64,000 nt of DNA. Source: Bifidobacterium avesanii (lineage in GTDB: Bacteria > Actinomycetota > Actinomycetes > Actinomycetales > Bifidobacteriaceae). The notes under the pieces are model-generated. The model had not been told where the DNA came from. It did not search any database and worked only from the letters and a program-made list of their open reading frames with translations. Made by a program: the position numbers and the translations under genes. Where the stretch lies: NCBI RefSeq assembly GCF_009299475.1, contig NZ_WBSN01000013.1, forward strand, positions 1 through 64,000. The letters are read 5' to 3'. Positions 128-54,228 of the stretch are shown here, in pieces. Within the stretch, counting starts at the first letter, position 1. Each line of letters begins with the position of its first letter.

Positions 128-910
128 TCGTCCAAGAAAAAGTCCGCACCCCCATTGGACGGCGCACGGCATTGGATCTGCTCAATTTGCGGATGGATGC
201 GCATGGATTGAGCGAATTCAGTGCGGCGCGAACTGATTGGGTCCTGCACGACATCGGATCCGCTCAATTTGCGAGGTTGGGTTGCTCGGATTGGGCTGAT
301 CGGTTCGGTATGGAACCGTTTGCCGGCATAGTGCCGGCATAGCGCGTCGGTTCCGGGCCGGCCGAGCGCGGCCATTGGGTTTGCCGTCGGCCGATCGTGG
401 TTTGCTGCCGGCCTGATGACAACGGAACGGCGACATTTCCATGGAGAAGGCCGGAATGCCGATGACGGCGATGAAAAATCCGTGCTTCCGTGGTCGGCCG
501 GTGATCCGCTGATCCGCATCCGTTTGCATCCGCGCCCATATGAGAGCCCATACGAGATGTGCGTTGCCGATATGTCCTGCGTATTGCCGATATGCGCCGT
601 CGAAGGCATGCCTGCGTCCGTTCCCGTACGCATACCTATTATTTTGCCCGGATGGCGGCGCTTGGCGTCAGTTTCCATATACGTATATATGAATCCGGAC
701 GCTTGGAGCGTGTCAGCGTCCCAATCCGTACGGGCCGATATTATTTCGCCCGCTTGGGTCGTCTCCGCGTCCGTTTTCGTACGGATGGATATTATTCCGG
801 CTGCGGCGAGCGGAATGTGCTTGATGCGATTGATGAGCTTGACGGATTGCCCGGATTCTGACCGGATCGGGCGACGGCGTCGGGCGGCCGGGACCAATCC
901 ACCCGGAAAT
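128..910. other. Gene-free region with degenerate palindrome repeats
   Basis: No frame here has a ribosome-binding site or family resemblance. Several long frames are open on both strands only because the sequence is internally repetitive with a period that is a multiple of three. The left part may include insertion-sequence end material; the right part carries the approximately 51-bp palindrome array annotated separately. Confidence 0.6.
536..800. repeat. Array of palindromes, ~51-bp period (array A)
   Basis: Short self-complementary cores occur at 625-630 (CGTACG), 677-688 (ATATACGTATAT), 727-732 (CGTACG) and 778-783 (CGTACG). Their centres average exactly 51 bp apart (55, 47, 51). Flanking words recur in register: TATTATT at 637, 739 and 790, and CCGG at 695 and 797. 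Earlier cores such as CATATG at 537-542 and CGATATG near 588 may be weaker units. The repeats make the frames on both strands look like 17-residue repeat proteins, but there is no start signal. Function unknown. Confidence 0.55.
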
Positions 911-946
911 GCAAAAGGCCGGAACCTTTGCGATTCCGGCCTTTCA
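911..946 (-). terminator. Intrinsic terminator downstream of tRNA-fMet
   Basis: AAAGGCCGGAA (914-924) pairs with TTCCGGCCTTT (934-944) around a 9-nt loop. Read on the minus strand, it lies directly 3' of the initiator tRNA and is followed by a short T-rich stretch, as expected of a Rho-independent terminator. Confidence 0.75.
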
Positions 947-948
947 AT

Positions 949-1025
949 TGGTAGCGGGGCATGGATTTGAACCATGGACCTCTGGGTTATGAGCCCAGCG
1001 AGCTACCGAGCTGCTCCACCCCGCG
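949..1025 (-). tRNA. Initiator tRNA-fMet (CAT)
   Basis: The reverse complement folds into a 77-nt tRNA starting CGCGGGG and ending CCCCGCT-ACCA, with CCA encoded. The anticodon arm CTGGGCTCATAACCCAG has anticodon CAT. The first acceptor pair is C1 opposite U72, which cannot pair, and the anticodon stem carries the GGG/CCC run; both are hallmarks of the bacterial initiator tRNA rather than elongator tRNA-Met. It is the only gene between the insertion-sequence end and metA. Confidence 0.95.
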
Positions 1026-1549
1026 TCGGCTTGTCTTGTTTCAGACAGCTCAACCTAAGATACGGGATGATTTGGGAAAGTCAAGCCGTCGGCGTGTATT
1101 CATCTGAGAGCGAACAATTACGGAAGGCGGGGACGAGAATGACATGAGCGGGCCGGACGGACGGAGGGCGTGAACGGAGGGTGCGGGCATCGGGCGTGAA
1201 TGGAAGGCGGGCGAGCAGCCAGGCGGGCGAGCAAGCCAGGCGGGTCACGGCGGGCAAGGGCGGGGACGGAGCCCCAAAGCTCCCGCCATCACGCGGCTCG
1301 AACGGTGACGCGAAAATCCATCCATGTGTAACGCACGCGTCCGTCCGCCCGCGCACACGCCACCATGCCGCAAACGTTCCAACCTGCGTTTTCGGGGCGT
1401 CAGGTTGGAACGAATGACGGATTGACGGATTGACGGACGTCGGATGGGCAGCCCCGGAGCTCCCGCTATCACGCGGCCCGATGATCGGCCATAAGCGCTT
1501 TCGATGGCCAACCGTCGCCTCCCGGGTGTCGCCCGGCCGCGCGTGTTGT
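1026..1549. other. Gene-free region upstream of metA
   Basis: No convincing gene. Contents: a short tandem repeat of the type AGGCGGGCGAGCAGCC around 1205-1250; a direct repeat (consensus AGCCCCRRAGCTCCCGC) at about 1268-1300 and 1448-1480, roughly 180 bp apart; and one copy of the 40-nt TCGTTCCAA hairpin family at 1374-1413. A partial palindrome AAGCGCTTTC lies near 1495. Confidence 0.5.
1374..1413. repeat. 40-nt hairpin, TCGTTCCAA family (copy 1)
   Basis: ACGTTCCAACCTG at the left pairs with CAGGTTGGAACGA at the right, giving a 40-nt hairpin. The same 40-nt unit, with conserved arms and a variable loop, occurs six more times in the window (10368, 10451, 34755, 34816, 39855, 39938), always in gene-free DNA. 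Confidence 0.75.
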
Positions 1550-1555
1550 CATAAT
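1550..1555 (+). promoter_or_regulatory. -10 box of metA, suggesting a leaderless mRNA
   Basis: CATAAT ends 7 nt before the ATG at 1563, so transcription would begin at or next to the start codon. This fits the lack of a usable Shine-Dalgarno site for that ATG (GGGGAG is only one base away). The -35 region is poor. Inference from position only. Confidence 0.5.
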
Positions 1556-1562
1556 GGGGAGT

Positions 1563-2603
1563 ATGCCTATCAAGATCCCCAGCGGCCTGCCGGCCAGAGA
1601 CATCCTCGACTCGGAGCGCATCTTCGCGCTTGAGAAGCCCGAGGCGGAGCGTCAGCGCGTCCGCCCGCTCAAACTGGTGATCCTGAACCTCATGCCCAAG
1701 AAGATCGAGACGGAGACGCAGCTGCTGCGCCTCATCTCCAAGTCGCCGCTGCAGGTGGAGATCGACTTCATGAAGACCTCCACGCACGAGGCCACGCATG
1801 TGAGCGCCGACCATCTGGTGAAGTTCTACGAGAATCTGGATGCGTTCCGCGACAACTACTACGACGGCTTCGTGGTGACCGGCGCGCCGGTGGAGCACAT
1901 GCCGTTCGAGGAGGTGGACTACTGGGACGAGTTCAAGCGGATCCTCGACTGGGCGTCCACGCACGTGTTCTCCACCATCTACCTGTGCTGGGGCGCCATG
2001 GGCGCGCTGTACTACCGCTACGGCGTGCATAAGCGCGACCTGCCCGAGAAGATCTTCGGCGTGTTCCCGCAGTACCTGCAGGACGAGTACTGCTTCCTGA
2101 CCAACGGCTTCGACGAGATCGCCCTCCAGCCCCACTCGCGCCTCGCCGGCGTGGACGAGGACGACGTGCGCGCCAACCCGGACCTCCAGATCCTCACGTG
2201 GGGGCCGCAGTCCGGCCCCGGCCTCATCGCCACGCGCGACTTCTCCGAGGTGTTCGCGCTGGGCCACTGGGAGTACGGCAAGTACACGCTCGCGGAGGAG
2301 TACGAGCGCGACATGAAGAAGGGCATGACCAACGTGCCCTTCCCGAAGAACTACTTCCCGCACGACGATCCCTCGCTGGAGCCCCTGTTCGCGTGGCGCG
2401 CGCACGCCAACCTGCTGTGGCGCAACTGGCTCAACTGGGTCTACCAGACCACGCCGTACGACCTGACCGAGGTGCCGCGCCTGCGCGCCGAGAAGAGGCT
2501 CGGGACCGATCGCTCGATCCGCCACGAGCCCGGCGGCCCGCGCTCCGACGACTACCGCCCGCTGCTCACCGACGGCTACGGGCTCGTCCCGCACGGGGCC
2601 TGA
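1563..2603 (+). CDS. metA: Homoserine O-acyltransferase (predicted acetyltransferase)
   Basis: MetA-family enzyme that acylates the gamma-hydroxyl of homoserine, the first committed step of methionine synthesis. The protein is 346 residues and starts MPIKIPSGLPA, colinear with the family start; an ATG at 1554 would add three residues. The catalytic cysteine is Cys142 (YLCWG) and the His/Glu pair of GHWEYG is His235/Glu237, the same numbering as E. coli MetA. Residue 111 is Glu (GAPVEH). In this family Glu111 has been tied to acetyl-CoA use and Gly111 to succinyl-CoA, so O-acetylhomoserine is the predicted product despite the usual succinyl name. It stands alone with a probable leaderless promoter. 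Homoserine comes from hom at 24.1 kb. Confidence 0.93.
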   Translation: MPIKIPSGLPARDILDSERIFALEKPEAERQRVRPLKLVILNLMPKKIETETQLLRLISKSPLQVEIDFMKTSTHEATHVSADHLVKFYENLDAFRDNYYDGFVVTGAPVEHMPFEEVDYWDEFKRILDWASTHVFSTIYLCWGAMGALYYRYGVHKRDLPEKIFGVFPQYLQDEYCFLTNGFDEIALQPHSRLAGVDEDDVRANPDLQILTWGPQSGPGLIATRDFSEVFALGHWEYGKYTLAEEYERDMKKGMTNVPFPKNYFPHDDPSLEPLFAWRAHANLLWRNWLNWVYQTTPYDLTEVPRLRAEKRLGTDRSIRHEPGGPRSDDYRPLLTDGYGLVPHGA

Positions 2604-2950
2604 CGGGTACGGCCCAGGGCGGCGCAACCCGCGCAGCCGTCCCCGCAACCCCACCCGCGAACGCACGAGGAGGTGTGACCTGCATCCCGACATCGCACAG
2701 CGGAAATGTTTGATTAGCTGTGTGTGTCCGCATTGTGGACGCATGATGGACCGAAATCGGCGCGTTCACATGACCCGGTCCGAATGCGGGCGTAAACCAT
2801 ACCGAAGGCTTGAGAAGCCGGCACTGTGAGCGTTCACGAAATGTGGCGCGCCGACGGAGCCCAGCACGGGCAACGCGTGGCGGGTCAAAGTAACGATTCC
2901 GTCACACACACCGGGCCGGCTGGGGCTATATTGAGTGATGTTTGAGTTAG
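2604..2950. other. Intergenic region, probable atp operon promoter region
   Basis: No gene. It must hold the promoter of the ATP synthase operon, since no atpI-like gene precedes atpB. TATATT at 2927-2932 is a possible -10 box but has no good -35. The feature that stands out is the LacI-type palindrome at 2822-2838. Confidence 0.45.
2822..2838. promoter_or_regulatory. LacI-type operator candidate upstream of atpB
   Basis: CACTGTGAGCGTTCACG contains the near-perfect palindrome GTGAGCGTTCAC, the form of LacI-family operators with a central CG. A 17-bp site identical except for one base lies at 21037-21053 in front of another gene, which supports recognition by the same regulator. Its position, about 125 bp before atpB, would link ATP synthase expression to carbohydrate control. 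The regulator is not identified. Confidence 0.5.
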
Positions 2951-2963
2951 AAGGAGGTACGAG

Positions 2964-3773
2964 ATGACAGGTGCGCTGAGTCTCGCGACCGCTGCGAGCA
3001 CGCTGGCGGACTTTGAAGTTCCATCGATTGACGACTTCCTGCCTGACGCGTTCGTCTTCCAGGGCACCCCGTTCGCCATCAACCGCATCGTCATGGTGCG
3101 TCTGATCGCCACCGTGGTCCTGCTGCTCGTCTTCGGCATCACCGCCAAGCGTGCCAAGCTCATCCCGGGCCGCTGGCAGGGCGCCGTGGAGTGGCTGCTG
3201 GAATTCGTGCGCAACAACATCGTCTACGAGGTCATGGGCTCGGAACGCGGCCGCCGCTACGTGCCGATGATCACCACGATCTTCATGACGATCCTCGTGT
3301 TCAACATCTGCGGCATCATCCCCGGCATGAACATCGCGGCCACCGCCACGATCATGATGCCGGTGTTCTTCGCGCTGTGGACGTTCGTGCAGTACTGGAT
3401 CGCCGCATGCAAGGGCAAGGGCCTCGGCAAGTTCCTCAAGGACGAGCTGCTACCCGCCGGCGTGCCGATCCCGGTCTACGTGATCCTCGCCCCGATGCAG
3501 CTCATCGACATCGTGCTCATCCGCCCGGCGTCCCTGGCCATCCGACTCTTCGCGAACATGATGGCCGGCCACCTGATCGTGGCGCTGTGCTTCTCCGCCA
3601 CGCAGTTCTTCCTCATCGAGGCGCACAACGCCCTCGCGGCGTTCGGCGTGGTCACCTTCGCGTTCGGCTTCGTGATGACCCTGTTCGAGGCGTTCGTCGC
3701 CGCCCTGCAGGCGTTCATCTTCGCCACGCTGAGCTGCGTGTACATCAACCTGAGCTACCCCGAGGAAGACTAA
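2964..3773 (+). CDS. atpB: ATP synthase Fo subunit a
   Basis: Integral membrane subunit a, which forms the proton half-channels beside the c ring. It is 269 residues with about five to six hydrophobic helices. The essential arginine lies in SLAIRLFANMMAGH (Arg194), facing the c-ring carboxylate. A strong site AGAAGGAGG (about 2951-2959) precedes the ATG. It is the first gene of the eight-gene operon atpBEFHAGDC. No atpI is seen upstream. Confidence 0.97.
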   Translation: MTGALSLATAASTLADFEVPSIDDFLPDAFVFQGTPFAINRIVMVRLIATVVLLLVFGITAKRAKLIPGRWQGAVEWLLEFVRNNIVYEVMGSERGRRYVPMITTIFMTILVFNICGIIPGMNIAATATIMMPVFFALWTFVQYWIAACKGKGLGKFLKDELLPAGVPIPVYVILAPMQLIDIVLIRPASLAIRLFANMMAGHLIVALCFSATQFFLIEAHNALAAFGVVTFAFGFVMTLFEAFVAALQAFIFATLSCVYINLSYPEED

Positions 3774-3784
3774 TCCCCGGGTAG

Positions 3785-4078
<294 letters not shown>

Positions 4079-4141
4079 TCCGTCCGGCGTAACGGCATAA
4101 CAACCCCAAGCCCAAGACGAATCACCTGAAAGGAGGCGGAT

Positions 4142-4672
4142 ATGGAGACATTGGCAGAAACCCAGGGCATTGACCTGTTCCTCCCGAAGACCTTCGACAT
4201 CTTCTGGAGCGCGGTCATCCTCGTGATCGTCGCCATTTTCTTCTACAAGTTCTTCCTGCCCAAGTTCCAGAGCATCTTCGACGAGCGCGCGGCCAAGATC
4301 GAAGGCGGCATCGCCAAGGCCGAGCAGGCCCAGAAGGAAGCCGACGCGGCCAAGGAGAAGTACGAGTCCCAGCTGAGCAACGCCCGCGTCGAGGCGGCCA
4401 AGATCCGCGACGACGCCCGTGCCGAGGCCTCGCACATCATCGCCGACGCCCGTTCCCGCGCCGAGTCCGAAGCGGCTCAGGTCACCGCGAACGCCCAGCG
4501 TTCCATCGCGTCCCAGCAGCAGCAGGCCCTGGTCAGCCTCAAGGGCGAAGTCGGCGTCATCGCCACCGCCTTGGCCGGCAAGATCCTCGGCGCCAAGCTG
4601 CAGGACGCCGATGTGCAGTCGTCCATGATCGATTCGCTCATCGACGACATCGACAAGGACCAGGCCGCGTGA
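4142..4672 (+). CDS. atpF: ATP synthase Fo subunit b
   Basis: Peripheral-stalk subunit of 176 residues: one N-terminal membrane helix (about residues 15-38) followed by a long charged Ala/Lys/Glu-rich coiled coil that dimerises and binds delta. The ribosome-binding site AAAGGAGGCG is close to ideal. Length is normal. It is not fused to the delta subunit, unlike the mycobacterial b-delta fusion. Confidence 0.96.
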   Translation: METLAETQGIDLFLPKTFDIFWSAVILVIVAIFFYKFFLPKFQSIFDERAAKIEGGIAKAEQAQKEADAAKEKYESQLSNARVEAAKIRDDARAEASHIIADARSRAESEAAQVTANAQRSIASQQQQALVSLKGEVGVIATALAGKILGAKLQDADVQSSMIDSLIDDIDKDQAA

Positions 4673-4712
4673 CCGGCCCAATCACAGCACGAATCCAAGT
4701 CAAGGAGGTGAC

Positions 4713-5531: not shown

Positions 5532-5570
5532 CGCGACGAGAAGGATTTTTATCAACAATAAGGAGTGATC

Positions 5571-7214: not shown

Positions 7215-7217
7215 GCC

Positions 7218-9621
<2,404 letters not shown>

Positions 9622-9622
<1 letters not shown>

Positions 9623-9915
9623 TGGCCGCCGAGAAAACCACGATGCAGGTGACGATCGTCGCCTCCGACCGTCCGGTGTGGTCGGGGCTGGCGGCGAGCG
9701 TGACCGTGCCCGCCTCCGAAGGCGGCATGGGCATTCTGCCGAATCATGAGCCCGTGCTCGTCGTCGTCAACTCCGGCCAAGTGGTCGTGACGGACGCCGA
9801 GGGCGCCCGCCACGGCTTCAACGTGGAGGACGGCTTCGTGGCCTTCGACTCGAATAAGCTCACCGTGGCGGTGGAGCACTGCTCCGACGAGGTGAGCGCC
9901 GAACAGGCCGCGTGA
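9622..9915 (+). CDS. atpC: ATP synthase F1 subunit epsilon, short form
   Basis: The 97-residue protein covers only the N-terminal beta-sandwich that binds gamma and the c ring (ASVTVPASEGGMGILPNHEPVLV). The C-terminal two-helix hairpin that inhibits ATP hydrolysis in E. coli (about 139 residues there) is missing. Other actinobacterial epsilon subunits are also short, so this is probably normal here. It implies that inhibition of reverse ATPase activity does not use the extended epsilon. TGA of atpD and ATG of atpC overlap (TGATG). Confidence 0.94.
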
Positions 9916-9957
9916 TCTTGTGATCGCGTGATCTTGTGATCGCTTGATCGCGGGATC
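9914..9957. repeat. 8-bp tandem repeat with GATC every 8 bp
   Basis: GATC occurs at 9914, 9922, 9930, 9938, 9946 and 9954, exactly every 8 bp, within units of the type GTGATCNN. The array starts inside the stop codon of atpC and ends before the operon terminator. Confidence 0.85.
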
Positions 9958-9980
9958 CGGCCCAACGGCAATCCGCTTGC

Positions 9981-10111: not shown

Positions 10112-10344
10112 CGTATACGCGTATACGTTCCGGACGCCGTGGATGCGGTTTCGGCGTCATTTGCGTATACGCGTATACGCGGAGTGCGTGCACAGACCGC
10201 TTCCGGCGTCGTGGGCGTATACGCGTATACGCTGCCTGCGCTGTGCGGGGTGTTCCGACGTCTCCGCCGTATACGCGTATACGGAAGGTTGTTGGATCAC
10301 AAGTTCGCCTACGTGGTCGTGCTGCTGCCGTATGCGCGCATACG
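10112..10344. repeat. Five 16-bp perfect palindromes, 52-bp period (array B)
   Basis: CGTATACGCGTATACG occurs at 10112-10127, 10164-10179, 10216-10231 and 10268-10283, exactly 52 bp apart. A fifth unit, CGTATGCGCGCATACG, lies at 10329-10344 (61 bp on). The fifth differs by symmetrical changes that keep it perfectly palindromic. The 36-bp spacers share only a loose TTCCGGCGTC-like segment. No frame here looks coding. It fills most of the gap between the atp terminator and nucS. Confidence 0.9.
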
Positions 10345-10367: not shown

Positions 10368-10490
10368 TCGTTCCAATCTGTGCCCCGAAATTCGCAGGTT
10401 GGAACGATCAACGGCAAAATTGCTTCCAAATGGCCGTGTTTTCCCGTCATTCGTTCCAACCTATGTTTTTGCGGGCACAGGTTGGAACGA
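10368..10490. repeat. Pair of 40-nt TCGTTCCAA hairpins, 83 bp apart
   Basis: Two 40-nt hairpins, 10368-10407 and 10451-10490, each start with TCGTTCCAA and end with TTGGAACGA. Their starts are 83 bp apart, the same as the pair at 39855/39938. Arms are conserved among all seven copies in the window, while loops vary. Confidence 0.85.
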
Positions 10491-10662: not shown

Positions 10663-10670
10663 GAGGGCTC

Positions 10671-11485: not shown

Positions 11486-11490
11486 TTTCC

Positions 11491-11606
11491 GCCCAATCCG
11501 CTACCGGATTTTGCGATATTGGGCAGAAACATGACGTGAGCGGCTTCTCGGAGCCTCTCAGCTCATGAATCTGCCCAATATCGCAATTTGCGCACGCAGA
11601 TTAGGC
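11491..11606. repeat. GCCCAAT double-hairpin element (copy 1)
   Basis: GCCCAAT at 11491 pairs with ATTGGGC at 11518, and the same arrangement recurs 82 bp on (GCCCAAT at 11573, ATTAGGC at 11600). The inner arms TGCGATATTGGGCAGAAACATGA and TCATGAATCTGCCCAATATCGCA (about 11512-11534 and 11563-11584) also pair with each other. A second copy with the same 82-bp repeat lies at 43508-43623. It sits between convergent genes (nucS and the FKBP gene). Confidence 0.8.
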
Positions 11607-11662
11607 AGAAACGGCGGGAACAGGGAGGAAACGGCGGGAACAGCGGAACGTCCCGCGTTCGA

Positions 11663-15340: not shown

Positions 15341-15346
15341 CGCAAA

Positions 15347-15575
15347 TCATATCGGACCGATATGAAAACGTACGCATGTACGGCGCAGGTGTTCCGAAAA
15401 ATATCGGTGTGATACGGGAACGTGCATCGGGCGTCCGCAGATGGCGCAAATCATATCCCGGTGATACGAAACCGTACGCGTATACCGTGCGGATGAACGG
15501 AATCATATCGTCCTGATATGAAACCGTACGGCTGAAGACGATGCATGGCGCAAATCGTATCGGACCGATGCAAAA
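15347..15575. repeat. Five hyphenated palindromes, exact 52-bp period (array C)
   Basis: Units resemble TCATATCGGACCGATATGA (15347-15365). Anchored on ATATC, they lie at 15349, 15401, 15453, 15505 and (as GTATC) 15557: four successive steps of exactly 52 bp. A second shared block, AAAACCGTACGCG, follows each palindrome in most units. Unit arms differ but stay largely complementary. The period equals that of array B at 10112, although the motif is unrelated. Confidence 0.9.
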
Positions 15576-18647: not shown

Positions 18648-18823
18648 TTTTGTAAAACAATTACAACAACGACGTTGTAAACGCCGCCAAACCGTCGATT
18701 TTGTAACGGTTTTACAAAACAGACGCCGAAACTGCCCGTACGGCGTCTCCTCTGTAAAACCGTTACAAAAGAGACGCCGGAGGACCCTTCAAACCGCACT
18801 TTTTGTAAAACCGTTACAGGAAT
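18648..18823. repeat. Four operator-like palindromes, 51-bp period (array D)
   Basis: TGTAA-N5-TTACA-type palindromes, such as TTTTGTAACGGTTTTACAAA, have their GTAA at 18652, 18703, 18754 and 18805: exactly 51 bp apart. An extra half-related palindrome, AACGACGTT, lies between the first two. The units are AT-rich islands in GC-rich DNA, immediately upstream of the argS promoter region. The shape is that of TetR-type operator sites. Confidence 0.85.
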
Positions 18824-34754: not shown

Positions 34755-34855
34755 TCGTTCCAATCCGCGGCCTCTTCGGCGCAGGCTGGAACGATCGCCT
34801 TGTTTTTGCCGTCATTCGTCCCAAGCTGCGTTTTCTGGGGCGCGGGTTGGAACGA
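34755..34855. repeat. Pair of 40-nt TCGTTCCAA hairpins, 61 bp apart
   Basis: Copies at 34755-34794 and 34816-34855. The second has an extended stem: TTTTGCCGTCATTCG on the left pairs with CGAATGACGGCAAAA on the right (to about 34867). Downstream of the DUF2264 gene. Confidence 0.85.
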
Positions 34856-34910: not shown

Positions 34911-35062
34911 TGTGTGTCTCAGATCGCATCCAATTCCGAAATTGGCGGTGATCCAGGACGTATTGGCCCGTCGCCGTGTCGCAATCCGCATCCGACTCCT
35001 AAGAAGGATGCGGATCAGGACACATATGACGGTGGGATTGTCTCAAACCGCATCCGCAGCCG
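34911..35062. repeat. GTGTCTC...GCATCC repeats, 62-bp period (array E)
   Basis: Three units with the consensus GTGTCTCAGATCGCATCC; the CATCC ends fall at 34931, 34993 and 35055, exactly 62 bp apart. Inverted partners (GGATGCGGAT.AGGACAC) lie between them, so each unit is hyphenated-palindromic. The same family, with the same period, is found at 40036 and 53629. Confidence 0.85.
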
Positions 35063-39854: not shown

Positions 39855-39977
39855 TCGTTCCAATCTGTGGCCTCTTCGGCGCAGATTGGAACGATCGCCC
39901 TGTTTTTGCCGTCTTCGGGGGCCGGTTTTGCCGTCATTCGTTCCAAGCTGCGTTTTCCGGGGCGCAGGTTGGAACGA
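39855..39977. repeat. Pair of 40-nt TCGTTCCAA hairpins, 83 bp apart
   Basis: Copies at 39855-39894 and 39938-39977, starts 83 bp apart as in the pair at 10368/10451. The first begins two bases after the AraC stop codon. Between them a 22-bp segment around GCCGGTTTTGCCGTC explains the difference from the 61-bp pair at 34755. Confidence 0.85.
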
Positions 39978-40030: not shown

Positions 40031-40271
40031 CGTGTGTGTCGCAATCCGCGTCCAATTCCGAAATTGGTGGCAATTGGAGACGCATTGGCCGGTCGCCGTG
40101 TCCTGATTCGCATCCGGTTCCGGAAATGGATGCAGGTCGAGACGCATCGGCGCCACGTCGTGTCCCGGATCGCCGCCGTTCTCGCAATTGGATGCAGGTC
40201 GAGACACAAAAAGCCTCCTGTGGCTTGCTTCGCATCCATCGCGAACAATGGGTGCGATTCAAGACATAGGA
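40031..40271. repeat. GTGTC...GCATCC repeats, ~62-bp period (array F)
   Basis: Four units; segment ends corresponding to GCATCC fall at 40053, 40115, 40177 and 40237 (steps 62, 62, 60). Inverted partners such as GGATGCAGGTCGAGACGC lie between. Same family as arrays E and G, again preceded by TCGTTCCAA hairpins as at 34755. Confidence 0.85.
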
Positions 40272-43378: not shown

Positions 43379-43507
43379 GTGCGATCCTTGAATGCGATGC
43401 TGATGGTAATGGCAATAATGCCACATGCCGCGCGGTTGGCCCATCGGAGTGTCAATCGTTTGCTGTCTGTCCCGTCCGCCCATTCGCCGGTCCGCCGTGC
43501 CGTTCCT

Positions 43508-43623
43508 GCCCAATCTGAACGTACGGATTGCCATATTGGGCAGAAGCTGCTGATAAGAGTGGCAATGGGTGCTCTCAGATCATGTTTTTGCCCAATCACG
43601 CAATATGGCGGCGCAGATTGGGC
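43508..43623. repeat. GCCCAAT double-hairpin element (copy 2)
   Basis: GCCCAAT at 43508 and ATTGGGC at 43535 recur at 43590 and 43617, an 82-bp offset identical to copy 1 at 11491. The element lies in the 503-bp divergent region between the AraC gene and the GH2 gene; apart from it, I see no gene there. Confidence 0.8.
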
Positions 43624-43881
43624 AGCTTCATGATGTGACGGCGGAGAACGGTTGCGGAAACGGCAATTTTTTCGTATGACAGTGCAATTTTCGCGGGTTG
43701 CGGACCATCGGCCGCGCGGCGGCGGTGCGTACAGTGGAAGACGTGGCGGCGGGCGGACTCCGCATGGCCGGGCGGGATGCGCCGGGCTCGCAGGAGGCGC
43801 CGAATCGCATGATGTGATGGACGACGGCGTTCGCGCAGGCGGCAAAAGCGCCGCCGCGGACGGAACCAAGGAGGGTTTGCG

Positions 43882-46761: not shown

Positions 46762-46895
46762 CGGCGGTGCCGGTCGGTGACATCGACCGCAATTTTTCAC
46801 CATCGATGAGCAAAAGAACCGCAGTCTCCGCTTGATTGCGACGGTAGCCTGAAGTCAATCGGCGAATACAGCACGTTCCAATGAAGGAGCAGACC

Positions 46896-49800
46896 ATGGG
46901 CGGCGTCACCATCACGGACACCACGATCACCATCCCCACCTACGAGATCGGCGCGGCGGACAAAAACCCCGAGTTCATCGAAAAGCGCGTGTACCAGGGC
47001 AGCTCCGGCCGCGTCTACCCGTACCCGGTGGTCGAAACGATCGGCGACGAGAAGCGCGACAAGGCGTATCGGGCCGTGATCCTCGAGAACGACTACCTCG
47101 AGGTGACCGTGCTGCCCGAGCTCGGCGGCCGCATCCAGTACGCGAGGGACAAGACCAACGGCTACGACTTCGTGTACCGCAACGACGTGATCAAGCCGGC
47201 GCTCGTGGGGCTCACCGGCCCGTGGATCTCCGGCGGCATCGAGTTCAACTGGCCGCAGCACCACCGTCCGACCACCTATCTGCCGGTCGACTACCGAATC
47301 GAGGATCTGCCCGACGGCGGCAAGGCGGTGCAGTGCCACGACACCGACCAGATGTACGGCACGCAGGCGGTCACCACGATCGCCCTGCACCCCGGCAAGG
47401 CGGTCATCGAGATCTCCGCGCAGCTGTACAACGGCACCGCGCTGCCGCAGACCTTCCTGTGGTGGGCCAACCCGGCCGTCCCGGTCAACGAGCACACCAA
47501 AACCGTCATGCCGCCGGACGTGACGGCCGTCATGGACCACGGCAAGCGCGACGTCTCCCGCTACCCGATCGCCACCGGCACCTACTACAAGCACGACTAC
47601 TCCGAGGGCGTGGACATCGGCCGCTACAAGAACGTGCCGGTACCGACCAGCTACATGGCCGCGCACTCCGAATACGACTTCGTTGGCGGCTACGACTTCG
47701 GTGTGGGCGCGGGCATCCTGCACGTGGCCGACCACCACGTCAGCCCCGGCAAGAAGCAGTGGACGTGGGGCAACGGCGACTTCGGCCGCGCGTGGGACCG
47801 CAACCTCACCGACGCCAACGGCCCGTACGTGGAGCTCATGACCGGCGTGTTCACCGACAACCAGCCCGACTTCACGTGGCTCAAGCCGTACGAGGGCAAG
47901 ACCTTCACGCAGTACTTCATGCCGTACAAGGGCGTGGGGCTCGTCAAGAACGCCACCGTGGACGCGGCCGTGAATCTGGAGATCGGCCCCGAGGACACGT
48001 TCGGAGCGGCCGGAGAGACCGAGGGCGTCGAGGCGCAGGGGCTCAAGGCCGGGCAAGGCCGCGTGACCGCGTACGCCACGGGCGTGTTCGAGGGCGCCCG
48101 CGTGACCGTGGCCAACCGCGCGACCGGCGAGACGCTGTACTCCCACACCGGCGTGATCGGCCCGAACGACGTCGTCCGCGCCGAATTCGAGACCGGGGGC
48201 GCGCCGGCCACCGACATCACCGTCACCGTGGCCGACGAGGACGGCAGGGTGCTCGTCGAGTACACGCCGAAGCCGCGGAGGATCGAGAAGCTGCCGGAGC
48301 CGGCCAAGGCCGCCGACGAGCCCGAGCGAATCGCCACCAACGAGGAGCTGCTGCTCGCCGGCCTGCACCTCGAGCAGTACCGCCACGCCACCTACATGCC
48401 GGACCCGTACTACCTCGAGGGCCTCAAGCGCGACCCGGGCGACGCGCGCATCAACAACGCGTACGGCAGGCTGCTCCTGCGCCGCGGCGACTTCACGGGC
48501 GCCGAGCGGTACTTCCGCGCGGCCATCAGGCGCCTGACCAAGCACAACACCCAGCCGTACGACTCCGAGCCACACTACAACCTCGGTCTGGCGCTGCTCT
48601 ACCAGGGCGGACGGGACGGCGAGGCCTTCGACGCCTTCTTCAAGGCCACGTGGGACGACGCCCAGAAGGAGCGCGCGTTCTTCGCCATGGCCGCCGTCGC
48701 CGCCCGCCGCGGCGACTATGCCGACGCCCTCGAATACGCGGACGCCTCCCTGACCCGCAACACCATGAACGTCAAGGCCCGCGCGCTGAGGGCGTACCTG
48801 CTGCGCAAGCTGGGACGTGCGCGGGACGCCGCCGCGGCGATCGAGGAGAACCTGAAAATCGACGCGTTCGACTTCGTGTCCGGCAACGAGCGCGTGATCG
48901 CCGGCGCCGACCCGGCCGAACTTGAGGGGCTCATGCGCGGATTCCACGAGAACTACCTCATGGCCGCGCGCGACTACGCTTTGTTCGGCGCCTACGGGGA
49001 GGCGCTGGCGCTGCTCGCCAAGGCCGACCAAACCAAGCCGATGGTCCGGTACTACGAAGGCCATTACCTTGCCCAACTCGGCCGCGACGCCGAGGCCCGG
49101 GCCGCCTTCGAGGCCGCCGAGGCCGCGCCCTCCGACTACTGCTTCCCGAACAAGCTCGAGGACATCGCCCCTCTGGAACGCGCCATCGCGACCGTGAACG
49201 GCCCGAAGGCCGCGTACTACCTCGGCTGCCTGTACTACGACAAGACGCTTGCCGACCGCGCAATCGCCCTGTGGGAGCGGTCGCGCGACCTCGACCCGTC
49301 CTTCCCGACCGTGCATCGCAACCTCGCGCTCGCCTACTACAACAAGCGCGGCGACGCCGAGCGTGCCCAAGCCGAGATCGAGGAGGCGTACCGGCTCGAC
49401 GAGTCCGACGCCCGCGTGTTTCTGGAGCTCGACCAGCTGCACCGCAGGATCGGCTGGACCTACGCCCGCCGCCTCGCCGAGTTCGAGCGGCACCTCGACG
49501 TGGTGTCCGCGCGCGACGACCTGTTCATCGAGTACCTCACCGTGCTCAACCAGACCGGCAACCACGCGCGCGCCTACGAGCTCATGCGTCGCCGCCGCTT
49601 CCACCCGTGGGAGGGCGGCGAGGGCAAGGTCACCGGCCAGTACCGCATCGCGCTGACCCTGCTCGCCAAGGACGCCATGGCCGCCGGCGAATGGGAGCAT
49701 GCCCGCGACCTGCTCACCCGCGCGCTCGCGTACCCGCACAACCTCGGCGAGGGCAAGCTCGAGGGCCAAAAGGACAACGACCTGCACTACTGGCTCGGCG

Positions 49801-50249
49801 TGGTCGCCCGCCATCTGGGCGACGGGAAGGCCGCCGAGGCCGAGTTACGCCGGGCCACGATCGGCCCCGACGAGGTGAAGGGCGCGATGTACTACAACGA
49901 CCAGCCCGCCGAGATGATCCTCTTCCAGGGGCTCGCGCACGCGGCGCTGGGGGAGCGGGGAGCGGCCAACGCCCGCTTCTACCGCCTGCTGGACTACGGC
50001 GAGCAGCACCTCGACGACCGGGTGAGGATCGACTACTTCGCCGTCTCGCTGCCCGACTTCCTCATCTTCGACAACGACTACACGAAGATGAACCGCGTCC
50101 ACTGCCTGTACCTCATGGGGCTCGCCAACATCGGCACCGGCGACCGCGCGGCGGCCTCGCGTCTCCTCGCCGAGGCGCTTGCGCTCGACCCGAGCCACAT
50201 TCAGGCGAACCTCTTCGCCGACGAGCTCGCCCATCGTCATGTACTGTGA
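46896..50249 (+). CDS. DUF5107 plus TPR protein, 1117 residues
   Basis: The N-terminal 330 residues are DUF5107 ([47 protein letters not shown]-like PGKKQWTWGNGDFG), a fold related to the galactose-mutarotase beta-sandwich. After a beta linker, residues about 480-1100 are TPR-type helical repeats (AYGRLLLRRGDFTGAERYFRAAI and others). No signal peptide. The conserved His/Trp/Glu-rich N-terminal domain suggests sugar binding or catalysis. The place between GH2 and GH35 genes suggests action on the same oligosaccharides. AAGGAG five bases before the ATG supports the start at 46896. Confidence 0.85.
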   Translation: MGGVTITDTTITIPTYEIGAADKNPEFIEKRVYQGSSGRVYPYPVVETIGDEKRDKAYRAVILENDYLEVTVLPELGGRIQYARDKTNGYDFVYRNDVIKPALVGLTGPWISGGIEFNWPQHHRPTTYLPVDYRIEDLPDGGKAVQCHDTDQMYGTQAVTTIALHPGKAVIEISAQLYNGTALPQTFLWWANPAVPVNEHTKTVMPPDVTAVMDHGKRDVSRYPIATGTYYKHDYSEGVDIGRYKNVPVPTSYMAAHSEYDFVGGYDFGVGAGILHVADHHVSPGKKQWTWGNGDFGRAWDRNLTDANGPYVELMTGVFTDNQPDFTWLKPYEGKTFTQYFMPYKGVGLVKNATVDAAVNLEIGPEDTFGAAGETEGVEAQGLKAGQGRVTAYATGVFEGARVTVANRATGETLYSHTGVIGPNDVVRAEFETGGAPATDITVTVADEDGRVLVEYTPKPRRIEKLPEPAKAADEPERIATNEELLLAGLHLEQYRHATYMPDPYYLEGLKRDPGDARINNAYGRLLLRRGDFTGAERYFRAAIRRLTKHNTQPYDSEPHYNLGLALLYQGGRDGEAFDAFFKATWDDAQKERAFFAMAAVAARRGDYADALEYADASLTRNTMNVKARALRAYLLRKLGRARDAAAAIEENLKIDAFDFVSGNERVIAGADPAELEGLMRGFHENYLMAARDYALFGAYGEALALLAKADQTKPMVRYYEGHYLAQLGRDAEARAAFEAAEAAPSDYCFPNKLEDIAPLERAIATVNGPKAAYYLGCLYYDKTLADRAIALWERSRDLDPSFPTVHRNLALAYYNKRGDAERAQAEIEEAYRLDESDARVFLELDQLHRRIGWTYARRLAEFERHLDVVSARDDLFIEYLTVLNQTGNHARAYELMRRRRFHPWEGGEGKVTGQYRIALTLLAKDAMAAGEWEHARDLLTRALAYPHNLGEGKLEGQKDNDLHYWLGVVARHLGDGKAAEAELRRATIGPDEVKGAMYYNDQPAEMILFQGLAHAALGERGAANARFYRLLDYGEQHLDDRVRIDYFAVSLPDFLIFDNDYTKMNRVHCLYLMGLANIGTGDRAAASRLLAEALALDPSHIQANLFADELAHRHVL

Positions 50250-50337
50250 CGGTCGACGACCGTAACGGCCGGCGGACGGCTACCGTGACGAACGGCGCCC
50301 ATCACCCAGCAACGGAGCAATCACATACGGAGCAATC

Positions 50338-52809
50338 ATGGAACACATCGTTGACCTGCGCGGCTTCGCCCGTCGCCCGATCCACCCCTTCGACGTCGTC
50401 GATCGGACCTGCAACACGAATCCGGACGGCGAGGCGATCGACTTCACCAACGCGTACATGACCATCGGCGGCAGGCCGTTCCTCGGCGTGAGCGGCGAAT
50501 TCCATTTCTCGCGCATGGACGCCTCGCGCTGGGACGACGAGCTGGCCCAGTGCGAGGCCGGCGGCGTGACCGTTATCTCCACGTACGTGTTCTGGAACCA
50601 CCACGAGGAGGTCGAGGGCGAATGGGACTTCACCGGCTCGCGCGACCTGAAGCGGTTCGTGGAGCTGTGCGCGCGGCACGGTTTGTACGTGATCCTGCGC
50701 CTCGGGCCGTTCGACCACGGTGAGGTGCGCAACGGCGGGCTGCCCGACTGGGTGTACGGCAAGGACTACGAGGTCCGTTCGCTCGACCCGGGCTGGCTCG
50801 CCGAGACGCGCGAGCTGTACGGGCGCGTCGCCGAACAGGTGGACGGGCTGTTCTACGCGCAGGGCGGGCCGATCATCGCCGCCCAGCTCGACAACGAGTA
50901 CATGCATTCGTGCGCCCCGTGGGAGATGACCACCGGCATCTCCGACGAGTGGGTGAGCAGCGGCTCGGACGGCGTGGCCTACATGGAGGCGATTCGGGAC
51001 ATCGCGCGCGAGGCCGGCATCCGCGTGCCGTTCTTCACCGCCACCGCGTGGGGCGGGGCCGCCGTGCCGGACGACGTGCTGCCGCTGTGGGGCGGGTACG
51101 CGTACCGGCCGTGGCTGTTCTACGCGCACGGCGGCGAGCATCCCAAGACCGACGAATACCTCTACCGCGACTTCCGCTCCGACGACTGCCCGCGCAACGC
51201 CGAGTTCGACCCCGCCTACCCGCCGTCCGCCAAGCCCTACGCATGCTGCGAGATGGGCGGCGGCATGATGAACTCGTACAACTACCGGTTCATCCTGCCC
51301 ACGAAGTCCGTGGACGCCATGGCCAACGTCAAGCTCGGCTCCGGATGCAACTTCCTCGGCTACTACATGTATCACGGCGGCACCAACCCCACCGGCCGCG
51401 GCGTCTACCTCAACGAGGGGCAGGTGCCCAAGAAGTCGTACGACTACCAGTGCGGGCTCGGCGAGTTCGGACAGGTGCGCGAGTCCTACGGGCGGCTCGG
51501 CGTGCTGCACGAGTTCGTCGCCGCGTTCGGGGACCGGCTCGCGCCCATGGACGTGGCGCTGCCCGCGGATCAGGCCGCGATCACGCCGGAGAACCGCGAC
51601 GCCCTGCGCTACTCGGTGCGCACCGACGGGCGGTCGGGCTTCATGTTCCTCACCAATTTCCAGGACCACGACGAATCGGACGCCAAACACGGCGAATCCA
51701 TCCGCATCGAGCTGCCGGGCTCTGCGGGTGGTGCTGGTTCCGCGGGCGGTGCTGGTTCCGCGGGCGGGACGGCCGACGTGCGCTTCGACGGCATCGGACT
51801 CGCGCCGGGGGAGAACTGCGTGCTGCCGTTCAACATGGACTTGGACGGCGTGACGCTTGAGGCCGCGACCGTGCAACCGGTCACCGTGATCCGGCCGCGG
51901 GGCGGCTCCGGTGCCGCGGGCGCTTCGGATACCGCCGGCGCCGCGGGGCGCCGCACGTTCGTGTTCATGCGCCCCGACGGCATGGACCGCGCGTGGATGC
52001 GGTTCGCGGGCGGCGGCTCCGGACGGGCCCGCGAGATCGCGATCGACGGCGAGGCGGACTTCCAGCGGTTTGAGGTCGGTTTCGGCGCCGACGGCCCAAT
52101 CGGTCCGGAGATCGTGGTCGTCAGCCGCGCCCTGGCGAACCGCATGACGGTGCTCGACGGCGAGGCGCTGGCCTTCGCGCCCGAGCCGGGCATGGACGAC
52201 CCCGCCGCGCTGGGCGAGATGAACGCCCTGTACCGTCGCGGCGACGAGGTCGTGGTCCGCTCCTTCGACGGACGGGCCGCCGCCGCGCCGAGCACGTACC
52301 CGGCCGGATACCTTGTATCGGTGGACGGCCGCGCATCCGATGCGCCGGACGATGCCCGCGACGCCACGTGCGGCGGCGCTTCCCGCGTGCTTGCCGCGTC
52401 GTTCTTCCCCGCCCCGACCGTCACGCGCATCCGCGGCAACCGCTTCGCCATCGACCTGCCGGACGGGCTGCCGGACGCCATCGCGTCGCGGGCCGGCGGC
52501 CTCGCGGACGTGCTGCTGCGCGTGCGCTACGTGGGCGACATCGGCTGGCTCTTCGCCGGCGGCCGGCTGCTCTCCGACAACTTCTGCAACGGCGACGTGT
52601 GGGAGATCGGGCTAAGGGACTCCGCGGACGCCATCCGCGCGGCCGGCGGCCGGCTCGTGCTCGTCATCACGCCCCTGAAGAAGGGCGTCAACGTGAACGT
52701 CGACTCGCCCATGGCCGCGCGTCTGGAAACCGCCGACGAATTCATCACCGGGCTCGACACCGTGACGCTCCAGCCGGTCCACGAAACCGTGCTTTGCAGG
52801 ATGGCGTGA
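50338..52809 (+). CDS. GH35-type beta-galactosidase
   Basis: 823 residues, intracellular. GH35 barrel: FLGVSGEFHFSRMDASRWDDEL, STYVFWNHHEEVEGEWDF, acid/base Glu187 in AAQLDNEYMH, probable nucleophile Glu305 in ACCEMGGGM, and YYMYHGGTNPTGRG. The family removes terminal beta-linked galactose (1,3/1,6/1,4). C-terminal beta domains are longer than usual and interrupted by a GSAGGA-repeat linker (about 461-476). Preceded by ACGGAGCAATC; 88 bp after the DUF5107 gene. With GH2 and DUF2264 it would strip side chains of galactose-rich glycans. Confidence 0.88.
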   Translation: MEHIVDLRGFARRPIHPFDVVDRTCNTNPDGEAIDFTNAYMTIGGRPFLGVSGEFHFSRMDASRWDDELAQCEAGGVTVISTYVFWNHHEEVEGEWDFTGSRDLKRFVELCARHGLYVILRLGPFDHGEVRNGGLPDWVYGKDYEVRSLDPGWLAETRELYGRVAEQVDGLFYAQGGPIIAAQLDNEYMHSCAPWEMTTGISDEWVSSGSDGVAYMEAIRDIAREAGIRVPFFTATAWGGAAVPDDVLPLWGGYAYRPWLFYAHGGEHPKTDEYLYRDFRSDDCPRNAEFDPAYPPSAKPYACCEMGGGMMNSYNYRFILPTKSVDAMANVKLGSGCNFLGYYMYHGGTNPTGRGVYLNEGQVPKKSYDYQCGLGEFGQVRESYGRLGVLHEFVAAFGDRLAPMDVALPADQAAITPENRDALRYSVRTDGRSGFMFLTNFQDHDESDAKHGESIRIELPGSAGGAGSAGGAGSAGGTADVRFDGIGLAPGENCVLPFNMDLDGVTLEAATVQPVTVIRPRGGSGAAGASDTAGAAGRRTFVFMRPDGMDRAWMRFAGGGSGRAREIAIDGEADFQRFEVGFGADGPIGPEIVVVSRALANRMTVLDGEALAFAPEPGMDDPAALGEMNALYRRGDEVVVRSFDGRAAAAPSTYPAGYLVSVDGRASDAPDDARDATCGGASRVLAASFFPAPTVTRIRGNRFAIDLPDGLPDAIASRAGGLADVLLRVRYVGDIGWLFAGGRLLSDNFCNGDVWEIGLRDSADAIRAAGGRLVLVITPLKKGVNVNVDSPMAARLETADEFITGLDTVTLQPVHETVLCRMA

Positions 52810-52872
52810 GGAGGGTGTGATACGATTCGTGGGCGGCGCAGGGCCCATCATTCCACGTCAAAGGAGCACGGC

Positions 52873-53571
52873 ATGAAGTTCATCGACAACATCTACAACC
52901 CGCCGGAGCCCCGGAAGGACGGCCGCAGCGACGACGAGGGGCGCGACGCCAAGCACGGCAGCGCGGCGATCGTGTGGGACGTGGTCACCCACCACACGTG
53001 GGAGCTCATCAAGCTCAACGTGCTGGTGTTCGTCACCTGCCTGCCCATCGTCACCATCCCCATGGCCGCCGCCGCGGCGACCAGCCTGTTCCGCGACATG
53101 ATCGGCGGGCGCGTGGTCTTCGTGTGGCACGACTACTTCAAGGCGTGGGGCGCATACTGGAAGCGCGCCAGCGTGATCGGCCTGCCCATCCTCGCCGTCT
53201 CGCTGCTCGGCGCGTTCGGCGCGTGGTTCTACTCGTCGTCCACCGTGGTCCCCGGCCTCGGCGGCGTGGCGTTCGCCGGACTGTGCGGCGCTGCCGCCCT
53301 CGTGGCGCTCGCCATGATGATCTACCTGTTCCCCATGCTCGTCGTGACCGACCTGAGCCGTCAGGAGATCTGGCGCAACTCCCTGCTGCTCGTGCCGCTG
53401 CGCTTCCCGTCCACGCTGCTCACCTTCCTGTTCGACCTGCTCATCGTGGCCGTCGGCGTGCTGCTCCTGCCCTACTCGTTCTTCGTGCTGCCGCTGTTCG
53501 GCCTCTCGCTCATCGGCCTGGCCGGCACGCAAAGCGCCCTCAAGGGCATCGCCCAGTTCGTCACGCGCTAG
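52873..53571 (+). CDS. YesL/DUF624-family membrane protein
   Basis: 232 residues with about five membrane helices (LIKLNVLVFVTCLPIVTIPM; VIGLPILAVSLLGAF; AALVALAMMIYLFPML; LFDLLIVAVGVLLLPY; LPLFGLSLIGLAG). Matches the YesL family, small membrane proteins often encoded within oligosaccharide ABC-importer and rhamnogalacturonan-use loci; the molecular role is unknown. AAAGGAG precedes the ATG. It ends the GH2-DUF5107-GH35 series. Confidence 0.85.
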   Translation: MKFIDNIYNPPEPRKDGRSDDEGRDAKHGSAAIVWDVVTHHTWELIKLNVLVFVTCLPIVTIPMAAAAATSLFRDMIGGRVVFVWHDYFKAWGAYWKRASVIGLPILAVSLLGAFGAWFYSSSTVVPGLGGVAFAGLCGAAALVALAMMIYLFPMLVVTDLSRQEIWRNSLLLVPLRFPSTLLTFLFDLLIVAVGVLLLPYSFFVLPLFGLSLIGLAGTQSALKGIAQFVTR

Positions 53572-53628
53572 GTCGCGGCCCGCGCGCTGTGTGTGCTCTG
53601 CGGCTCTGTGCTCCGGCGTTTCGCGTCT

Positions 53629-53985
53629 GTGTCCCCATCCGCATCCATTTAGCAAACCGGATGCGATTTGAGACGCATCATGGCCCTATGCTGTCTTAAC
53701 CTGCAGCCGTCTCCGGTTTTGGCGGCGATCTGAGACGCGATGCCCCTGCCTATGCCCTGATCCGCATCCAGCAATCGGAATGGATGCGATTTGAGACGCA
53801 CAACAGCCATTCTGTGTCTCGAATCGCATCCGAATTCAGTTTTGGCGGCGACCGGAGACACAACGGCCGCTATTTGTGTCTCAGATCGCATCCGTTTCCG
53901 TTTTGGGTAGTGGATTGGGACGCAAAAGGCCCGAATCGCGTCTCAATCCGCATCCGTCGCGGCAACGGGCCTCCGGCCGCCTTCG
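53629..53985. repeat. GTGTCTC...GCATCC repeats, six units, 62-bp period (array G)
   Basis: The unit GTGTCTCGAATCGCATCC ends at 53646, 53708 (decayed), 53769, 53831, 53893 and 53955; steps are 62, 61, 62, 62, 62. Each unit faces an inverted partner (GGATGCGATTTGAGACGC). Largest of the three arrays of this family in the window. No gene. Confidence 0.9.
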
Positions 53986-53995
53986 GTGGTTGGGC

Positions 53996-54228
53996 TACCT
54001 GGCTTTCCGAGGGCAGATCAGGGTCTCTGTGACCATCCACTCCGCCTTCCGAGGGCACCCCATCTACCGCATCAGGCTTATCGCCGATCCGCGGCCGCTG
54101 GAATTCCGCGACTTTCCAAGGCCATAACCGGTATGCTCCCCAAGCGAAGTGCCCTCGGAAGGGCAAGTAGATGTCCGCGAACCCGCGAATCCGCCCTCGG
54201 AAGGGCAAGTAGCCGTTTTCCGAAGGCA
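53996..54228. repeat. Inverted pair of 42-bp repeats, TTCCGAGGGC family (array H)
   Basis: TTCCGAGGGC occurs at 54005 and 54047 (42 bp apart) on the plus strand; its complement GCCCTCGGAA recurs on the other side with CGGAA at 54156 and 54198 (again 42 bp apart). The outer segments GGCTACCTGGCTTTCCGAGG (from 53992) and CCTTCCGAGGGC's partner ending GTAGCC extend the symmetry. The whole is a ~220-bp inverted arrangement upstream of the ABC exporter operon. Confidence 0.8.

What the first reader, a model, noticed from the sequence alone, without database searches (positions are those of the whole stretch)
536..54228. Intergenic motif arrays whose periods are whole numbers of DNA turns
Eight arrays built from different motifs share a small set of spacings: 42 bp (54005/54047 and 54156/54198), 51 bp (536-800; 18652-18805), 52 bp (10112-10268; 15349-15557), 62 bp (34931-35055; 40053-40177; 53646-53955) and 82-83 bp (hairpin pairs at 10368, 11491, 39855, 43508). 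These are close to 4, 5, 6 and 8 turns at 10.4 bp per turn. Unrelated sequences converging on helical phasing suggests that each array places palindromes on one face of the DNA, for example for cooperative binding by a protein family, looping or nucleoid organisation. Each array keeps its own sequence, unlike REP/BIME or CRISPR families. I know no described bifidobacterial element with these properties.
Basis: partly seen in the sequence, partly recalled or inferred. Interest (0 to 1): 0.88.

Follow-up and report, generated by a model that had tools for sequence, protein, structure and literature searches.

The report
Bifidobacterial palindrome arrays phased to DNA
Between many genes of gut bifidobacteria lie rows of palindromic sites set a whole number of DNA turns apart, which look like docking strips for unknown DNA-binding proteins that bind on one face of the double helix.

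Summary
The named arrays are present at 51, 52, 62 (arms every 31), 82-83 and 42 bp. In 80 other Bifidobacteriaceae loci, window excluded, spacings of repeats with an inverted copy nearby cluster near 42, 52, 62, 73, 83 and 105 bp; best period 10.42 bp, nR2 27.3, n=92. One spacing per motif family gives nR2 21.8 (67 families), or 15.2 without this genome (55 families). Coding repeats (1.2) and minisatellites (0.0) show nothing. Not all samples agree: 20 arbitrary stretches gave 3.3, genome G133 0.4.

Units are dyads with a fixed-length core; the arms show no covariation, favouring double-stranded protein sites over hairpins. Arrays are densest between convergent genes. This motif is in print as a cas-less 'Undetermined' CRISPR (PMC4521832). 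Best reading: one-face cooperative binding by unidentified proteins, perhaps architectural.

The parts
625..801 (+). Array of four units (CGTACG....GATATTATT) at 625, 676 (weak), 727, 778; period 51 bp; downstream of tRNA-Met (949-1025, - strand)
   Evidence: tRNA
10112..10344 (.). Array of five 16-bp palindromes CGTATACGCGTATACG; steps 52, 52, 52, 61; between an ATP-synthase-like ORF and a NucS-like ORF (both names recalled)
   Evidence: ORFs
10369..10489 (.). Two GTTCCAA dyads (F83): arms 24 bp apart, period 83
11489..11608 (.). Two TGCCCAAT dyads, same geometry as F83 (24 / 82); three of the four arms are weak matches
15346..15573 (+). Five ATCATATC..GATATGA dyads, period 52 x4
18648..18821 (.). 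Four TTTTGTAAAACCGTTACAAAA dyads, period 51 x3; one unit in the reverse orientation
34756..34854 (.). Two F83 dyads at 61 bp instead of 83, i.e. two whole turns fewer
34913..35055 (.). F62 arms (GGATGCGATTCGAGACACA), 31/62 bp
39856..39976 (.). Two F83 dyads, period 83
40035..40268 (.). Eight F62 arms in alternating orientation, every 31 bp (one step of 29)
43506..43625 (.). TGCCCAAT dyads (24 / 82), one arm not found
53628..53955 (.). F62 array, arms mostly every 31 bp
54000..54228 (.). CCCTCGGAAGGGC units: 54000/54042 and, inverted, 54151/54193; 42 bp

Best explanation
The arrays are strips of double-stranded binding sites for sequence-specific DNA-binding proteins not yet identified. Each unit is a dyad: either a compact 16-24 bp palindrome, or two 14-20 bp arms around a core whose length is fixed and whose sequence is largely free. 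The protein presumably binds each dyad as a dimer. Successive dyads are usually 4 to 8 whole turns apart (about 10.4 bp each), so bound dimers face the same side and can touch, polymerise or loop cooperatively. This genome carries about ten such motifs, each with its own preferred period, dispersed over intergenic regions. Arrays are densest between convergent genes and rarest in divergent regions, which suggests an architectural job (roadblock, insulator, supercoil or chromosome-folding site) rather than promoter control. SHOWN: anatomy, phasing, lack of arm covariation, location bias, dispersal, limited species range. INFERRED: that protein binds, that binding is cooperative, and the architectural role.
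For: Phasing: NucS loci without window n=92, nR2 27.3, best period 10.42; own-genome sample without window and CRISPR n=39, nR2 21.2. One per motif family: 67 families 21.8, 55 families 15.2 without this genome, 45 families 11.5 in the NucS loci alone; 200,000 draws of 67 random lags never exceeded 12.4. Short repeats with an inverted copy 55.2 (n=142), minisatellites 0.0 (n=63); coding 1.2 (n=148). Steps within one family change by whole turns: 52, 52, 72, 51, 62, 52 in L012 and 93, 51, 63, 52 in L034; 83 and 61, 52 and 61 in the window. Core length rigid: 31 bp in 30 of 31 F62 units, 24 in 14 of 14 F83, 35 in 10 of 10 (L015), 28 in 12 of 12 (L041), its sequence mostly free. Arms do not covary, G-U allowed: p=0.27 and 0.19 for the two strands. 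Whole-genome scans with free gaps: F62 26 of 26 own-genome places at one gap, F83 19 of 19 within 1 bp, TGTCCGATTC 43 of 43 at 51 bp in 11 of 112 genomes. Location: 0.485 per kb convergent, 0.277 codirectional, 0.130 divergent.
Against: No binding protein identified; few regulators lie beside arrays (HTH_3 in 3, AraC-type in 2 of 64 flanking proteins; no background set scanned). Phasing is not universal: G133 nR2 0.4 (n=23); 20 arbitrary stretches of the genus 3.3 (n=25) or 1.0 over the longer range (n=37). One own family at 70 bp is out of phase, as are other lags (for example 46-50, 57-60). Repeats without an inverted copy also show some phasing (7.7, n=128), as do long duplications (12.4, n=59). 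In some arrays (L041, L074) spacers resemble each other, so duplication took part. Spacers hold weakly conserved positions and are not wholly free. The controls outside the genus are too small.
Confidence: 0.72

Rival explanations
1. REP/BIME-like mobile palindromes: extragenic repeats spread by a transposase, the phasing being a by-product of mobilisation or of gyrase/IHF-type binding.
For: Palindromic, extragenic, dispersed, clade-limited, densest between convergent genes.
Against: No Y1 transposase (PF01797, the RAYT domain) found in the genome; one rve match with a stop inside and one partial ISL3 match at a contig end; other transposase families not tested. REP hairpins pair (recalled); here partner arms fit no better than unrelated arms. 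E. coli K-12 (250 kb) gave too few repeats to compare (n=3).
Confidence: 0.15
2. Operators of ordinary local transcription factors, several per promoter.
For: Compact palindromes have operator size; one F83 spacer in G000 (C1:167008) and three of four in G170 hold a TGTGAGCGCTCACA-like motif.
Against: Arrays are rarest in divergent regions (0.130 per kb against 0.485 convergent); neighbours are a mixed set with many metabolic and tRNA-synthetase-type genes and few regulators; one family recurs at many unrelated loci.
Confidence: 0.1
3. RNA hairpins (terminators or mRNA stabilisers) repeated in tandem.
For: Inverted repeats, often near gene ends.
Against: No covariation of arms with G-U allowed; the period fits B-DNA, which should not matter in RNA; only two tRNAs reach Rfam thresholds in the window.
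Confidence: 0.06
4. Neutral tandem duplications, or cas-less CRISPR arrays as published for some of them.
For: Regular spacing; PMC4521832 lists the TGTCCGATTC repeat of two species as 'Undetermined' without cas; L041 and L074 spacers resemble each other; long duplications are also somewhat phased.
Against: Minisatellites in the same set of regions show no phasing; one family forms short arrays at many loci with one period; step lengths change by whole turns. The CRISPR-like array of this genome looks different (L102).
Confidence: 0.05

Closest known systems
REP/BIME extragenic palindromes (E. coli, Pseudomonas; features recalled)
   Same: Dispersed extragenic palindromes, several families, away from divergent promoters
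   Different: Helical phasing, fixed-length dyads with independently varying arms, no Y1 transposase found in the genome
'Undetermined' cas-less CRISPR arrays of Bifidobacterium (PMC4521832)
   Same: TGTCCGATTCTCCAGAATCGGACA (B. dentium) and ATGTCCGATTCTGCAGAATCGGACA (B. ruminantium) are the motif found here at 51 bp; TTGTGTGAGGATTTGCTCGCACA (B. thermacidophilum porcinum) closely resembles the 72-74-bp motif of L074/L087
   Different: Not read as CRISPR here: short arrays at many loci, one period per family, dyads on whole helical turns
Phased operator pairs and iteron arrays (Lac/Gal/lambda repressor loops, plasmid iterons; recalled)
   Same: Sites on one helical face for cooperative binding
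   Different: Many dispersed arrays per family, several families per chromosome, not at promoters, no known protein
Chromosome-domain marks such as parS/ParB or matS/MatP (recalled)
   Same: Short palindromes; one family is concentrated near the origin in the genome sampled
   Different: Phased multi-site arrays; zoning seen for one family only

Membership tests
REP/BIME | Dispersed extragenic palindromes | tested here: met
REP/BIME | Preference for 3' ends of genes | tested here: met
   16 of 87 convergent, 43 of 389 codirectional, 11 of 178 divergent regions; codirectional median 114 bp after the upstream stop, 219 bp before the next start
REP/BIME | Foldable hairpin whose arms stay paired | tested here: not met
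   partner arms match no better than permuted arms (8 families with units, 2 to 31 units each)
REP/BIME | Associated Y1 (RAYT) transposase | tested here: not met
   0 matches in own genome; control rings in 5 of 14 genomes
CRISPR | cas genes with the array | not tested
   the paper classes arrays without cas genes as Undetermined and lists this repeat so
CRISPR | Repeats confined to one or a few loci, with unrelated spacers | tested here: not met
   one family at many loci in short arrays; spacers hold weakly conserved positions
Transcription-factor operator array | Palindromic dyads, helically phased | tested here: met
Transcription-factor operator array | Located at promoters | tested here: not met
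Transcription-factor operator array | Common regulon or adjacent regulator gene | tested here: inconclusive
   HTH_3 in 3 and AraC-type in 2 of 64 flanking proteins; no background scanned, only the 25 commonest of 118 families listed
Minisatellite / tandem duplication | Whole unit repeated, period free of helical constraint | tested here: not met
Protein-bound array | A protein that binds it | not testable with these tools
   no binding data available

The most novel reading that the evidence does not exclude
Bifidobacterial chromosomes are organised by a set of fast-evolving DNA-binding proteins, each with its own dyad family. They coat one face of the helix at gene ends and act as insulator- or centromere-like strips; motif and protein co-evolve so quickly that each clade has its own set. 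In one clade a family (TGTCCGATTC) is concentrated on the origin side of the chromosome, as a chromosome-domain mark would be.
Probability: 0.28. Interest if true: 0.92.

Novelty: new variant of a known kind. Interest (0 to 1): 0.78.

Why it matters
It is a statistically strong sign of helical phasing in chromosomal DNA of a major gut genus that lay unexplained, partly filed under CRISPR. It says what to look for (proteins that bind dyads cooperatively on one helical face) and offers ready baits. If the proteins prove architectural, bifidobacteria would have a many-specificity chromosome-organising system with fast co-evolution of protein and site. It also suggests re-examining cas-less 'CRISPRs' in this genus.

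Tried and rejected
Adjacent-regulator idea: Pfam on 64 of 65 listed flanking proteins of 36 array regions showed few regulators; no background was scanned. Transposase idea: PF01797 none, PF00665 one match with a stop inside, PF01610 one partial match at a contig end. RNA idea: Rfam scan of the window gave two tRNAs; covariation tests negative. Inverted-pair distances show no common phase, as expected if arm spacing is family-specific. Macrodomain idea: strong for one family in G086 (34 of 38 sites in three of 21 stretches), but this genome's own families look dispersed over both arms on a rough synteny map that anchored 13 contigs, so it is not claimed in general. G133 and G100 were sampled to extend it: G133 has no phasing (nR2 0.4, n=23), G100 6.0 (n=27), and neither gave a clearly zoned family. 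G086 itself gives 21.5 (n=29), mostly from one family.

Bias to note: 10 of the 20 own-genome stretches were chosen because one search had found F62 there, and the four for CGTATACG arrays; the one-per-family tests are the guard. still held a CRISPR-like array (L102); removes it. Families were clustered by single linkage, which may merge or split them. A 61-bp array in L179, suspected of being CRISPR, holds L038-type arms; dropping it leaves 65 families, nR2 20.3. Regions longer than 2500 bp (3000 in the own sample) or with N were skipped; low-complexity repeats and matches over 40-45 bp were dropped before the main counts. The location counts use phased lags without the inverted-copy filter. 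My first reading of the L012 steps was off by one in places; one search gives the right ones.

Papers: PMC4521832 abstract, table passages and section 7; PMC12306157, PMC2267715 and PMC2788695 passages only; all others search listings only. The gene names NucS, atp and dnaA are recalled from sequence; no call names them.
Full report
WHAT WAS CHECKED. The window is bases 1-64000 of contig 5 of an unnamed 2.68-Mb genome, Bifidobacterium-like: the nearest named locus for its NucS-like protein (name recalled) is B. vespertilionis, 89% identical. 34756/34817 is 61, two turns less than its 83-bp relatives, and 10268 to 10329 is 61, about one turn more than 52. Palindromes are strongly enriched over shuffles (30 against 4 at score 8 or more).

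IS THE PHASING REAL? The idea came from this window, so it was tested elsewhere. 80 loci of up to about 20 kb were fetched from Bifidobacteriaceae around the NucS-like gene, genes were called with a home-made caller, and lags between short direct repeats in intergenic DNA were listed (446 pairs in 280 kb including the window; 10 in one shuffle). Counting each region and lag once, window included, the best period is 10.44 bp with phase near zero, nR2 35.3, n=178. One lag per region keeps nR2 near 17 with a median best period of 10.44 (91 regions). Repeats in coding DNA show a 3-bp rhythm but none at 10.44 (nR2 1.2, n=148). Requiring an inverted copy in the same region, the 80 loci without the window give n=92, nR2 27.3, best period 10.42, with clusters near 42, 52, 62, 73, 83 and 105 bp; the own-genome sample without window and CRISPR gives n=39, nR2 21.2. 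One lag per motif family gives 21.8 (67 families), 15.2 without this genome (55 families) and 11.5 in the NucS loci alone (45 families); 200,000 draws of 67 random lags never exceeded 12.4. Over NucS loci, window and own sample, short repeats with an inverted copy score 55.2 (n=142), those without 7.7 (n=128), long duplications 12.4 (n=59; arrays with similar spacers may fall in this class) and minisatellites 0.0 (n=63).

RESULTS THAT DO NOT FIT. Twenty 20-kb stretches from the starts of contigs of other genomes of the genus gave only nR2 3.3 (n=25, lags 30-140; phase in the right direction) and 1.0 (n=37, lags 30-320); before the inverted-copy filter 2.7 (n=60) and 1.4 (n=84). G133, sampled at 21 places, has no phasing (0.4, n=23); G100 gives 6.0 (n=27). 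Controls outside the genus are too small to prove absence: other members of the phylum n=8 from two regions, nR2 0.9; E. coli n=3, nR2 0.4. One own family at 70 bp is out of phase, and 70 is a visible peak (8 counts) in the pooled histogram. So the trait is widespread in the genus but not universal.

ANATOMY. A unit is a dyad. In long units two conserved arms (up to about 1.8-1.9 bits per column) flank a core of fixed length: start to start 31 bp in 30 of 31 F62 units, 24 in 14 of 14 F83, 34 in 8 of 9 F82, 35 in 10 of 10 in L015, 28 in 12 of 12 in L041, 27 in 4 of 4 in L048, 26 (7) or 27 (2) in L012/L034. Core and outer spacers carry little information, though not none: in the TGTCCGATTC family the middle of the 27-bp spacer is about 75% AT, and F83 spacers carry short A- and T-rich tracts (40 of 43 and 16 of 19 sequences used). 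If units worked as hairpins, the two arms of a unit should match each other better than arms of other units; they do not (permutation p 0.19 to 1.0 per family; pooled p 0.27 and 0.19 with G-U allowed). The recognised form is therefore most likely double-stranded DNA. Whole-genome scans that let the gap vary by 24 to 30 bases show how rigid it is: F62 11 of 11 and 26 of 26 own-genome places; F83 16 of 19 at one length and 3 one base shorter; TGTCCGATTC(N4)GAATCGGACA 43 of 43 forward pairs at 51 bp in 11 of 112 genomes (a few of these pairs are near-copies). Of 22 own-genome places of CGTATACGCGTATACG (2 mismatches allowed), 20 lie in five arrays with 52-bp steps, one ending in a 61-bp step, and two are single. 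In L012 seven units step by 52, 52, 72, 51, 62 and 52 bp, i.e. 5, 5, 7, 5, 6 and 5 turns; in L034 five units step by 93, 51, 63 and 52.

FAMILIES AND LOCATION. F62 and F83 recur through the genome and in one other genome, G170, with the same gaps (7 of 8 places for F62, 3 of 4 for F83). Single matches in 10 further genomes for F83 and 4 for F62 mostly have other gaps, and reversed control patterns for F83 also match now and then, so those look like chance. An exact CGTATACG pair matched in 1 of 112 genomes, this one. Other species have their own families. F83 and the TGCCCAAT family share geometry (24 / 82-83) and the core CCAATCTGCG, as if one had diverged from the other. Phased regions are densest in convergent gaps (16 of 87; 0.485 per kb), then codirectional (43 of 389; 0.277) and divergent ones (11 of 178; 0.130); 14 further regions touch a locus end. 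Neighbouring genes are a mixed set; HTH_3 matches 3 and AraC-type domains 2 of 64 flanking proteins, without a background for comparison.

HOW IT MOST LIKELY WORKS. Shown: dyads of fixed geometry, whole-turn steps, no arm covariation, location bias, dispersed clade-limited families. Inferred: a dimeric protein binds each dyad; dimers on one face contact each other along the strip; the product is an architectural or roadblock complex. No binder is known. The Y1 transposase of REP systems was not found; of rve and ISL3 transposases one match each, broken or partial, was found.

WHAT IS IN PRINT. Searches for the phenomenon (20, 20, 3 and 1 papers listed of 134, 254, 3 and 1) showed no paper that, by title and abstract start, describes it. 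A search by motif letters (20 of 56 listed) led to PMC4521832, whose table lists TGTCCGATTCTCCAGAATCGGACA (B. dentium) and ATGTCCGATTCTGCAGAATCGGACA (B. ruminantium) as 'Undetermined' CRISPRs, the class the authors use for arrays without cas genes; TTGTGTGAGGATTTGCTCGCACA (B. thermacidophilum porcinum) resembles the L074/L087 motif. The library holds open-licence papers only.

A LEAD. G086 is a 2.636-Mb single contig whose first kilobase encodes DnaA-like peptide words. Of 38 TGTCCGATTC sites in 21 sampled stretches, 34 lie in those at 0, 100 and 230 kb; 16 of the other 18 stretches have none. All 14 exact pairs lie at 10.6-293 kb. In five further genomes with DnaA words at the contig start the 9 pairs lie within about 380 kb of it on one side or the other (G119 3, G099 2, G078 2, G065 1, G077 1); the other five of the 11 matching genomes are in pieces or were not checked. 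The families of the window's own genome look dispersed. Domain marking is therefore a lead, not a finding.

Noticed in passing
L172, L193, L194 (G086:C1:0-250 kb) against 18 other stretches of the same chromosome: The TGTCCGATTC array family is concentrated on the origin side of the chromosome (34 of 38 sites in three of 21 stretches).
   Followed up: partly
L102:12452 onward (G000 contig 15): A CRISPR-like array (GATCATCCCCGCCTACGCGGGGAACAC repeat, 61-bp period) that had to be excluded from the phasing counts.
   Followed up: partly
L116:8131-10117: Two different families (CGTATACG at 52 bp, TTTTGTAAATCCGTTACAAAA at 51 bp) follow each other in one intergenic region.
   Followed up: no
G170 matches; G000:C1:167008: F83 spacers that contain a TGTGAGCGCTCACA-like palindrome, resembling a LacI-type operator (recalled).
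   Followed up: no
L102, L092, L105, L108 (70-bp lags): GGACCGGGAGCGGGCACTCCCGGTCC family with a 70-bp period, the clearest out-of-phase family of this genome.
   Followed up: no
G133 stretches L229 (1.2 Mb) and L238 (2.65 Mb): Repeats with lags 38, 57 and 76 bp, multiples of 19, in a genome without helical phasing.
   Followed up: no
L009:9820-9950: CATCCTGAGCG/CGCTCAGGATG repeats occupy the gap upstream of the NucS-like gene in B. vespertilionis, where the window has the CGTATACG array.
   Followed up: no
G100 at 613, 619 and 1066 kb: A 63-bp family whose arms hold GTGTTTCACG / CGTGAAACAC, reminiscent of half a parS site (recalled).
   Followed up: no
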